A stretch of 37,315 nt of DNA from Clostridia bacterium (GTDB lineage: Bacteria > Bacillota_A > Clostridia > Christensenellales > Aristaeellaceae), in assembly GCA_017399225.1 (NCBI GenBank), contig JAFQEB010000012.1, positions 1 to 37,315 on the forward strand, given 5' to 3'. The notes beneath the pieces were generated by a model. That model searched no databases. It worked only from the letters and a program-made list of their open reading frames with translations, and had not been told where the DNA came from. Shown here piece by piece: positions 7,397 to 37,302 of the stretch (the stretch's first letter is position 1; every line of letters begins with the position of its first letter). The position numbers and the translations under genes are program-made.

Positions 7397-7400
<4 letters not shown>
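6663..7400 (-). CDS. metI: Methionine ABC transporter permease MetI
   Basis: 245 residues. Integral membrane subunit of the MetNIQ methionine importer. Five hydrophobic segments are visible after a short polar N-terminus (ATILATFFAIVIGLPLGMLL; VVINLLRSVPFTILMVTVIPL; TVASIVPLVIAAFPFVARLV; FTLAITTIMGYTAMSGTVGG; FVMYAAVIVLVIITQVM). The EAA-loop that docks on the ATPase reads ETAQSMGATPMQIMLHVMIPES, and the GYTAMSGTVGGGGIG signature is specific to this subfamily. The start ATG (7400) overlaps the metN stop by four bases, so translation is coupled. Last gene of the operon; a convergent terminator follows. Confidence 0.96.
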
Positions 7401-8431
<1,031 letters not shown>

Positions 8432-8453
8432 GAGACCAGCCTCCATAACGCAA

Positions 8454-8512: not shown

Positions 8513-9385
8513 TTATTCAGCCGCAGGAACCTTCAGCGCATCCAGCGTGGCCTGCTTGCCGCCATACAGACCCATGGGCTCGACATGGATGGGCGCAACG
8601 ATCACGATGTGCGTGCCGTTCTCGGCGTTGAAGTTGTCCTGATAGGGAATGTGCGCGAAGTAGTTTGCAAACACGTCGCCAGCTTCCACAACCATGTTGG
8701 GCTGGACATAGTCAGCGAACTCGATGACCTTCAGGGTCACGTTCTTTTCAGCCAGGATCTCAGCGGCAACCGCCAGGATCTGGGCATGGGGCACGGGAGA
8801 CGCAGCCACGGTGATCTCAGTGCCGGCCAAGGCAGCATAGTCGACCGTCGCATCGAAGCCATCGGTGGGCTCAGCCACGACGGAGACAGCAGAGCCGCCG
8901 TAAGTGGTAGTGATGTATTCGGCAACCTTCCGGCTGGTCAGCGCAGCCACCAGCGCCTTGGTAGCGTCGGTGTTCTCATTGCCCGCCTTGACGCACAGAA
9001 CGTTGGCATAGGGGGAATCAGCGCTTTCGATCAGCAGGGAATCCTTCACGGGATTCAGACCGGCGTCCAGCGCAAAGTTATTGTTGATGATGGCATAGTC
9101 CACATCGCCCTTGATGTTGGGGATCATGGCAGCCTCGACCTCCTGGAACTTGATGCCCAGGGGATTCTCAGCGATATCCTTGGCAGTGGCGGTGATGCCG
9201 GCTTCTTCCTTGAGCTTGATGATGCCGTTGGCCTCCAGCAGCAGCAGGGCGCGGCCTTCGTTGGTGGGATCGTTGGGCACTGCGATGGTGATGCCCTTAT
9301 CCTTGCTGCCGGCAACAAAGCCAAGCACGACGCCGACGCAAACCAGAACTGCCAGCAGGATGATGATGAGCTTCTTCTTGTTCAT
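8513..9385 (-). CDS. metQ: Methionine-binding protein MetQ with permuted domain order
   Basis: 290 residues from ATG 9385 (AAGGAG nine bases upstream; the in-frame ATG at 9481 overlaps a small ORF and is rejected). NlpA/MetQ family substrate-binding subunit. Family blocks are unmistakable but in swapped order. Residues 31-170 carry what is normally the second half (IAVPNDPTNEGRALLLLEANG; AENPLGIKFQEVEAA; DYAIINNNFALDAGL; SPYANVLCVK). A linker follows (~171-188). Residues 189-290 carry what is normally the first half (VAASPVPHAQIL; KVIEFADYVQPN; ANYFAHIPYQDNFN; IHVEPMGLYGGKQATLDAL). The C-terminal TLDAL joins naturally to the N-terminal GITIAVPNDP, as expected of a circular permutation. The N-terminus (residues 6-26) is hydrophobic but has no lipobox (VLVC, -1 not small), so it probably stays as a membrane anchor. 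Assignment to MetQ is supported by metN and metI downstream. Confidence 0.93.
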   Translation of the reverse strand: MNKKKLIIILLAVLVCVGVVLGFVAGSKDKGITIAVPNDPTNEGRALLLLEANGIIKLKEEAGITATAKDIAENPLGIKFQEVEAAMIPNIKGDVDYAIINNNFALDAGLNPVKDSLLIESADSPYANVLCVKAGNENTDATKALVAALTSRKVAEYITTTYGGSAVSVVAEPTDGFDATVDYAALAGTEITVAASPVPHAQILAVAAEILAEKNVTLKVIEFADYVQPNMVVEAGDVFANYFAHIPYQDNFNAENGTHIVIVAPIHVEPMGLYGGKQATLDALKVPAAE

Positions 9386-9510: not shown

Positions 9511-9538
9511 CTACAAGGGCCTCCTTTTACCGATATCT

Positions 9539-9583
9539 AAAGAAAAGAGGAAGTCTCCATCCTTCGATGCAGCTTCCTCCTTC
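9539..9583 (-). terminator. Attenuator terminator in the metQNI leader
   Basis: Leftward hairpin GAGGAAG/CTTCCTC (arms at 9573-9579 and 9547-9553), with an inner CATC-GAAG-GATG mini-stem, followed directly by TTTTCTTT. It lies about 50 bases after the Met-rich leader ORF stop and 150 bases before metQ, so it must be read through for the transporter to be made. A weaker CTGCC/GGCAG hairpin (9587-9591, 9616-9620) lies between leader stop and terminator. Confidence 0.8.
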
Positions 9584-9629
9584 TCTCTGCCACCCTGTAT
9601 TCCTCCGGGATGTCGGGCAGCGATATCAG

Positions 9630-9722
9630 TCAGCGCATCTGAATTCCGGTACGGCAACGCATGCTCATGCGGCACATGCACATGGGCATCATCATGAACA
9701 TCGCGGTGTGTACCAGCTTCAT
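9630..9722 (-). CDS. Met/Cys-rich leader peptide of metQNI
   Basis: A 30-codon ORF (ATG 9722, TGA 9630-9632) with a good ribosome site (GAGGAAGGGAG, about nine bases upstream), starting about 28 bases after the predicted transcription start. Ten of its 30 codons are ATG, including three in a row (codons 10-12), and three are TGC; codons 8-23 read MFMMMPMCMCRMSMRC. An intrinsic terminator follows, then metQNI. This is the layout of a transcription-attenuation leader peptide in which ribosome stalling on scarce Met (perhaps Cys) codons decides terminator formation. I could not derive a unique antiterminator pairing by eye. A Met/Cys-rich metal-binding peptide is a less likely alternative. Confidence 0.8.
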   Translation of the reverse strand: MKLVHTAMFMMMPMCMCRMSMRCRTGIQMR

Positions 9723-9756
9723 CTGCGCGTACTCCCTTCCTCAGGAAATTACAAAA

Positions 9757-9785
9757 AGGATAACATGCGCTTTCGGGTTTGTCAA
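9757..9785 (-). promoter_or_regulatory. Sigma-A promoter of the metQNI leader
   Basis: Leftward TTGACA (9780-9785), 17-base spacer, TATCCT (9757-9762). It is placed about 35 bases before the Met-rich leader ORF. Confidence 0.82.
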
Positions 9786-37108: not shown

Positions 37109-37182
37109 TGATCCCGGCAGGACTCGAACCTGCGACCTTTTGATTCGTAGTCAAACACTCTATCCAGCTGAGCTACGAGACC
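37109..37182 (-). tRNA. tRNA-Arg (ACG), copy 1
   Basis: 74-base cloverleaf on the leftward strand: acceptor GGTCTCG/CGGGATC, D-stem GCTC/GAGT, anticodon loop CTACGAA (anticodon ACG, reading CGN), T-arm GCAGG-TTCGAGT-CCTGC, discriminator A. The 3' CCA is not encoded. Second in order of transcription, followed by a terminator. Confidence 0.97.
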
Positions 37183-37228: not shown

Positions 37229-37302
37229 TGATCCCGGCAGGACTCGAACCTGCGACCTATTGATTCGTAGTCAAACACTCTATCCAGCTGAGCTACGAGA
37301 CC
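37229..37302 (-). tRNA. tRNA-Arg (ACG), copy 2
   Basis: 74 bases, identical to the copy at 37109-37182 except for one base in the variable loop region (AATCAATAGG versus AATCAAAAGG). Same anticodon ACG, no encoded CCA. The 46-base spacer between the two genes has no similarity to tRNA; both are probably cut from one transcript that begins beyond the window edge. Confidence 0.97.

What the first reader, a model, noticed from the sequence alone, without database searches (positions are those of the whole stretch)
8513..9385. MetQ is circularly permuted: the two halves of the methionine-binding protein are in swapped order
In MetQ of E. coli and Bacillus the mature protein runs from the HAEIL / DYVLPN / FQHIPYL / HVEPMGLY blocks to the VAVPNDPTNEGRALLLL / ENPKNLKF / INTNYA / SPYANV blocks. 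Here the second set comes first (residues 31-170) and the first set last (189-290), joined by an 18-residue linker (~171-188). The open ends match the missing joint: C-terminal ATLDAL plus N-terminal GITIAVPNDP restores the usual SLDEL-GATIAVPNDP. The frame is continuous, the start has a good ribosome site, metN and metI follow, and both halves keep family residues, so this looks like a functional permuted gene rather than a misassembly. I know of no described permuted MetQ, but could not search.
Basis: partly seen in the sequence, partly recalled or inferred. Interest (0 to 1): 0.92.

Follow-up and report, generated by a model that had tools for sequence, protein, structure and literature searches.

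The report
Circularly permuted methionine-binding protein
The two halves of a bacterial methionine-capturing protein really do stand in swapped order in this gene; the swap is a conserved form found in many Clostridia, and a second, separate lineage appears to have made the same swap on its own.

Summary
Residues 30-168 match the second part of MetQ/NlpA, residues 190-284 the first part, joined by a conserved linker. It is no misassembly: 80 of 80 kept genome loci carry one MetQ-like frame, in this order, two from named Oscillibacter strains. In 17 of 20 host genomes it is the only PF03180 gene found. It is under purifying selection, metN and metI follow, and methionine-contact residues are kept in 92 of 92 sequences, which form one clade. 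A divergent second lineage has the same cut but another linker; trees place it apart and tests reject one origin (p-AU 0.0003 and 0.017), so the permutation probably arose twice. A methionine-rich leader and a terminator precede 45 of 91 permuted genes. Most likely it is a working methionine-binding protein cut at the hinge; binding is untested. Searches found no permuted MetQ in print; Treponema MglB-2, a permuted glucose-binding protein, is the nearest precedent.

The parts
8513..9385 (-). permuted metQ, 290 aa, ATG at 9385
9299..9385 (-). residues 1-29: hydrophobic N-terminal segment (helix 3-21 in the model, low confidence at 16-29), no lipobox by the strict pattern; membrane anchor or signal peptide
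8882..9298 (-). residues 30-168: the second part of ordinary MetQ (profile 96-234), now first; holds R45, N101, N103, N128
8822..8881 (-). residues 169-188: conserved linker joining old C-terminus to old N-terminus (G176, Y183, G188 in 92 of 92)
   Evidence: pLDDT 96 and 98 for blocks 171-180 and 181-190
8531..8821 (-). residues 189-285: the first part of ordinary MetQ, now last; holds Y226, F243, H245, Y248
7397..8446 (-). metN, ATPase with NIL domain, 349 aa
6663..7400 (-). metI, permease, 245 aa
9630..9722 (-). 30-codon methionine-rich leader ORF (10 Met)
9537..9581 (-). intrinsic-terminator-like hairpin and T-run between leader and metQ
   Evidence: the stricter scan (loop of 3-8) does not list it
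9757..9785 (-). promoter-like site TTGACA-17-TATCCT upstream of the leader
   Evidence: consensus match only

Best explanation
The gene encodes the substrate-binding protein of a MetNI-type methionine importer whose chain has been circularly permuted at the lobe-lobe hinge. The old N- and C-termini are joined by a conserved linker of about 20 residues; the new termini lie at the old hinge crossing. Shown: swapped order, conserved clade, purifying selection, operon, kept ligand residues, confident model. Inferred: it closes on methionine between two lobes as MetQ does and docks on MetI; the membrane tether now leaves from the lobe that holds R45/N103/N128 instead of the other lobe; and each lobe becomes one continuous stretch of chain, so that the lobes are joined by one covalent crossing instead of two. 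It most likely arose from an in-frame tandem metQ duplication followed by loss of the outer halves, and the same probably happened a second time in a distant MetQ lineage.
Against: No binding or transport data. The structure aligners keep chain order and aligned mainly the first segment to MetQ chains; the old N-half was matched by sequence only. The curated MetQ models of NCBIfam are not reached (156.3 bits against 228.85 for TIGR00363). The window's protein lacks a lipobox (strict pattern in 50 of 92). In 3 of 20 genomes further PF03180 genes exist. The duplication route is inferred: no N-C-N-C form was seen among the 354 proteins held. One lobe crossing is reasoned from the ligand residues of each lobe, not measured. 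Nearest ordinary relatives differ between the halves, so fusion of halves from two paralogues is not excluded.
Confidence: 0.85

Rival explanations
1. The swapped order is an assembly artefact.
For: Metagenome assemblies do contain mosaic forms: 12 C-N-C and 6 N-C-N among 233 proteins, each listed with one contig.
Against: 80 of 80 kept loci from separate assemblies, two of them named strains, share order, breakpoint and linker; the permuted rows are one clade.
Confidence: 0.01
2. It was not one gene that was permuted: halves of two different metQ paralogues were fused in this order.
For: Nearest ordinary relatives differ between the halves (old N-half: L159, L145, L157; old C-half: L163, L149, L161). 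Support for the clade is only 0.856 on the old N-half.
Against: Both halves give the same permuted clade with 0 misplaced of 164; alignments of 95 and 138 columns cannot place nearest relatives reliably.
Confidence: 0.15
3. It folds as a two-lobe binding protein but has changed ligand and is no methionine carrier.
For: No assay; below the NCBIfam MetQ cut-offs.
Against: Contact residues kept in 92 of 92, metN and metI downstream in 70 of 80, methionine-codon leader upstream in 45 of 91, only PF03180 gene found in 17 of 20 genomes.
Confidence: 0.1
4. The two permuted lineages go back to one permutation, with the linker and both halves changed greatly afterwards.
For: Same cut site; the rejection is weaker under the mixture model (p-AU 0.017), and the group tested was named after a first tree had been seen, which the test does not allow for.
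Against: p-AU 0.0003 under LG+G4; a branch with SH-aLRT 100 joins type 1 with 19 ordinary rows and leaves type 2 out; linkers differ in length and sequence; tree distance between the types about 2.2, against 0.9 from type 1 and 1.5 from type 2 to the nearest ordinary MetQ.
Confidence: 0.2

Closest known systems
MetQ/NlpA methionine-binding lipoproteins (Pfam PF03180; E. coli MetQ 4yah, N. meningitidis MetQ 6dzx)
   Same: Both sequence halves, ligand-contact residues, metNI operon
   Different: Order of halves swapped at the hinge; linker joins the old termini; membrane tether moved to the other lobe (inferred); some members without lipobox
Treponema MglB-2 (Tp0684) and relatives, circularly permuted glucose-binding proteins called Type Ic / Cluster Bc (PMC4990184; passages seen, part of the abstract among them)
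   Same: Natural circular permutation of an ABC-importer binding protein, found mostly in treponemes and Gram-positive bacteria; its authors also think of tethering
   Different: Other fold class (Type I) and other cut: three strands of the N lobe moved to the end, which adds a fourth lobe crossing; its moved part has 13% identity to the E. coli counterpart, whereas here both halves are recognised at high score
metL leader peptide upstream of metNIQ in Streptomyces lividans (PMC8079986; passages seen)
   Same: Short Met/Cys-containing leader before a methionine importer
   Different: There a leaderless start and no typical terminator; here 10 Met in the window's leader and a terminator-like hairpin in 45 of 45 leader-bearing sequences

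Membership tests
MetQ/NlpA (Pfam Lipoprotein_9) | score above the curated Pfam cut-off | tested here: met
   248.2 bits, cut-off 27, two stretches
MetQ/NlpA (NCBIfam TIGR00363, NF008285) | score above the curated NCBIfam cut-offs | tested here: not met
   156.3 against 228.85 and 151.1 against 374; expected if the model assumes the ordinary order
MetQ/NlpA | order: thioether-pocket half before R/N/N half | tested here: not met
   hence filed as a permuted variant, not as an ordinary member
MetQ/NlpA | methionine-contact residues in both lobes | tested here: met
   R45, N103 (and N101), N128, Y226, F243, H245, Y248 in 92 of 92; R45 and N128 follow from alignment offsets to 6dzx, the last four from identical spacing; which of N101 and N103 equals N213 is unsure, both are invariant
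MetQ/NlpA | cognate MetN and MetI | tested here: met
   window; 70 of 80 loci with both downstream, 3 with metN only, 7 with neither. The 3 and 5 of the 7 lie within about 1 kb of a contig end; L040 and L063 do not. In L022 and L072 metN is 1.6-2 kb away
MetQ/NlpA | lipid-anchored cysteine after a lipobox | tested here: not met
   not in the window by the strict pattern; strict pattern in 50 of 92 sequences, several more with looser sites
MetQ/NlpA | binds methionine | not testable with these tools
   needs a binding assay
Type Ic / Cluster Bc (TpMglB-2-like) | natural circular permutation of a binding protein | tested here: met
Type Ic / Cluster Bc (TpMglB-2-like) | MglB-like Type I sequence family | tested here: not met
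   at E up to 1 Pfam lists Lipoprotein_9 and, below their cut-offs, SBP_bac_6 and DUF6550; no Type I family
ribosome-mediated attenuator | leader ORF with a run of regulatory codons | tested here: met
   45 of 91 sequences at 5 Met in 12 residues; at 6 in 12, 40 of the 42 such ORFs in 904 kb are these leaders
ribosome-mediated attenuator | intrinsic terminator after the leader | tested here: met
   45 of 45 at score 18 or more against 34 of 450 shuffles; any score 45 of 45 against 57 of 450
ribosome-mediated attenuator | competing antiterminator | tested here: inconclusive
   complementarity to the terminator arm not above shuffles: mean z -0.24, 3 of 45 under -2; window z +1.0; a crude test

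The most novel reading that the evidence does not exclude
Hinge-cut circular permutation of the methionine-binding protein evolved at least twice, each time at the same cut, each time with a linker that is predicted as ordered and holds one short helix, and each time kept as a working partner of MetN. If so, cutting this fold at the first lobe crossing is an easy evolutionary step from tandem metQ genes and gives a protein with one instead of two covalent lobe connections and with the tether on the other lobe, a natural test of which crossings the Venus-flytrap motion needs.
Probability: 0.6. Interest if true: 0.85.

Novelty: new variant of a known kind. Interest (0 to 1): 0.74.

Why it matters
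Natural circular permutations of ABC-importer binding proteins seem rare in print; my searches brought up one, Treponema MglB-2. The case here is recognisable half by half, is present in named Oscillibacter strains, has many ordinary relatives for comparison, and seems to have happened twice. That makes it a good system for asking how permutation arises (tandem genes one stop codon apart still exist) and whether the lobe connections and the tethered lobe matter for capture and delivery. It also warns that models built on the ordinary order, such as TIGR00363, can score such proteins below their cut-off, while names like MetQ/NlpA family in the databases hide the swap.

Tried and rejected
Long forms as evolutionary intermediates: 12 C-N-C and 6 N-C-N among 233 proteins looked like steps of permutation by duplication. 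In the trees the first C-half of the C-N-C forms, and the C-half and last N-half of the N-C-N forms, have permuted genes (or other long forms) as nearest rows, some at distance 0.00 (P0016, P0020, P0058, P0069). The extra half has ordinary MetQ among its three nearest rows in 8 of 12 C-N-C and in 5 of 6 N-C-N; for P0017, P0125, P0148 and P0153 the nearest rows are each other, and for P0086 they are other long forms. P0017, P0125 and P0153 share one extra half at distance 0.00 although their first halves differ. Each of the 18 is listed with one contig. I take them as chimeric contigs or recent recombinants, not as intermediates; this is a judgement, the DNA was not seen. Two more C-N-C forms turned up with the second lineage.

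Antiterminator in the leader: no complementarity above shuffles. Rfam: no riboswitch or T-box in the window, only two tRNAs; in 11 of the 46 permuted sequences without a leader, two T-boxes and one tRNA were found, the T-boxes on the strand opposite to metQ and over 1 kb away.

Type 2 frequency: with the type 2 profile at E up to 1e-30, no match in 299 phylum and 196 class genomes scored above 166 bits. The contiguous ones are type 1 genes, except the 166-bit match in G425, which reads through a stop in the tandem ordinary pair of L140. So type 2 was not seen in samples where type 1 was seen in 3 of 299 and 13 of 196 (centre genome included). Type 2 came from 2 of 151 genomes of one order and from a protein search (117 of 120 listed are C-N, 2 C-N-C, 1 scored C-C-N).

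A single origin for both types was tested and rejected, on 25 permuted rows (13 type 1, 12 type 2) against 56 and 55 ordinary rows, quick trees; the second test left out one long-branched row (L207). The group had been named after the tree was seen. An altered ligand for type 2, suspected from T102 in place of the second Asn, was dropped because E. coli MetQ has a Thr there too.

The genome search samples stayed within the phylum of G015; the scan covered the held species genomes but kept 80 of 240 relatives. Completeness of the genomes is not told, so a missing ordinary MetQ is not proof of absence. The rows leave out loci L083-L100 and L102-L111 (one search also L180) as repeats of places already held; L184 and L190 repeat L032 and L068, both without a leader, and one search also pairs repeated places. 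Upstream tests of ordinary metQ are weak: of the ordinary open frames checked, 32 have 450 nt or more upstream.

Full report
WHAT IS THERE. The gene at 8513-9385 is on the minus strand, ATG at 9385, 290 codons, followed by metN (8446-7397) and metI (7400-6663). The protein is hit twice by Pfam Lipoprotein_9 (248 bits, cut-off 27), the better stretch being protein 30-168 = profile 96-234. Against solved structures the two segments match in swapped order: query 190-284 = 4k3f 4-98, query 30-167 = 4k3f 100-237, with domain E-values of 9.4e-25 and 8.2e-39; 4ib2 and 4qhq repeat this. This is a circular permutation by sequence. The curated NCBIfam MetQ models are not reached.

IT IS A FAMILY, NOT AN ACCIDENT. 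Of the 120 proteins listed by the database search (the window's own among them; best of 7999 scored), 111 have the order C-half, linker, N-half. A scan of species genomes matched 250 stretches, 240 of them relatives, and kept the best 80 loci; all 80 have one MetQ-like open frame, in this order, and no other in the flanks held. Records are named Clostridia, Oscillospiraceae, Lachnospiraceae and the like; L046 (Oscillibacter sp. MSJ-31) and L054 (O. valericigenes An907) are named strains. metN and metI both lie downstream in 70 of 80, metN alone in 3, neither in 7; the 3 and 5 of the 7 are within about 1 kb of a contig end, L040 and L063 are not. In 20 of these genomes PF03180 matches 94-99 to 233-235 first and 1 to 91-101 behind it in the permuted gene, and in 17 of 20 this is the only PF03180 gene found; G006, G009 and G011 have others. 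Completeness of these genomes is not told. Sampling: 13 of 196 genomes of the class have one contiguous permuted match and no other, among 74 with any match; 3 of 299 of the phylum, two of which are also in the class sample; 3 of 151 of another order sample. Each count includes the centre genome.

SELECTION, LINKER AND LIGAND RESIDUES. Median dN/dS is 0.158 (maximum 0.39) over 72 overlapping pairs. The linker 169-188 is as conserved as the halves (3.39 bits a column against 3.36 and 3.51), with G176, Y183 and G188 in 92 of 92. In N. meningitidis MetQ, R156, N213 and N238 of one domain and Y81, F98, H100 and Y103 of the other lobe surround methionine (PMC6739813, passages). Their equivalents R45, N103 (N101 is also invariant), N128, Y226, F243, H245 and Y248 are present in 92 of 92. 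R45 and N128 follow from the aligned ranges of 6dzx; the N-half residues from identical spacing (17, 2, 3). So the cut separates the residues of one lobe from those of the other: it lies at the hinge (inference from this).

ORIGIN. Trees of 164 sequences (92 permuted, 72 ordinary): the permuted rows are one side of one branch for the old N-half (0.856), the old C-half (0.995) and both (1.0), with none misplaced. Among 90 loci with 95 ordinary frames, L140 and L204 hold tandem metQ genes in one frame separated by a single stop codon; L206 holds a tandem pair in one frame with more stops between, and L172 three genes in a row in different frames. This is the raw material for permutation by duplication; the route itself is inferred, and no N-C-N-C form was seen.

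THE LEADER. A 30-codon ORF with 10 Met lies at 9722-9630 upstream of the window's gene, behind a promoter-like site and before a terminator-like hairpin; the RNA folds with z -8.2. With a threshold of 5 Met in 12 residues, 45 of 91 permuted sequences with 450 nt or more upstream have such a leader, 46 do not. With 6 in 12, 42 such ORFs exist in 904 kb of window and loci L001-L080 and 40 of them are these leaders. A terminator-like hairpin follows in 45 of 45, against 34 of 450 shuffles at the same score. Of 70 ordinary loci scanned none has one at 6 in 12, but most have short flanks. The type 2 locus L192 has one as well, L193 none at 5 in 12. An antiterminator was not found. A Met-containing leader before metNIQ is in print for S. 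lividans (PMC8079986, passages), and a survey of Actinobacteria saw no conserved RNA structures before methionine operons (PMC1262725, passages); in the listings, of which two show 20 of 347 and 20 of 138 papers, I saw no Met leader described for Firmicutes. It supports methionine as the signal, hence as the likely cargo.

MECHANISM. Shown: order, conservation, selection, operon, residues, predicted fold. Inferred: methionine is caught between the lobes, the loaded protein docks on MetI, and anchoring is by the N-terminal hydrophobic segment (lipobox by the strict pattern in 50 of 92, not in the window). For N. meningitidis MetQ the lipid is needed for full stimulation of MetNI and an unprocessed signal peptide serves in part (PMC8416018, passages), so an uncleaved helix is a plausible anchor here.

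COMPARISON. Treponema MglB-2 is a permuted binding protein of another fold class with another cut (PMC4990184, passages). Searches for a permuted MetQ or NlpA found none (listings seen, showing 20 of 31); the library holds only open-licence papers.

Noticed in passing
window 9537-9785, minus strand: Methionine-rich leader peptide with promoter-like site and terminator-like hairpin before permuted metQNI, found in 45 of 91 permuted sequences; no Rfam family matches there.
   Followed up: partly
L192 3402-4328 (+), L193 1426-2346 (-): Second, divergent permuted MetQ lineage with a different linker, beside metN (and metI in L193); L192 also has a Met-rich leader.
   Followed up: yes
L140 676-2367 (-), L204 148-1908 (+): Tandem ordinary metQ genes in one reading frame, separated by a single stop codon.
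   Followed up: partly
proteins P0016, P0017, P0024, P0047, P0122, P0125 and others: Long C-N-C and N-C-N MetQ forms, each listed with one contig; they look like mosaics of a permuted and another metQ gene, probably chimeric contigs or recombinants.
   Followed up: partly
L177 1449-2699 (-), L179 870-2501 (-): Open frames with a segment resembling an amino-acid binding protein (label recalled, not searched) in front of an ordinary MetQ, as if two binding proteins were fused.
   Followed up: no
window 8513-9385 and relatives such as L002, L003, L010: Part of the permuted family has no lipobox cysteine by the strict pattern and carries a plain signal-peptide-like segment or a hydrophobic helix instead.
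   Followed up: no
window 37109-37182 and 37229-37302, minus strand: Two tRNA genes at the end of the window.
   Followed up: no
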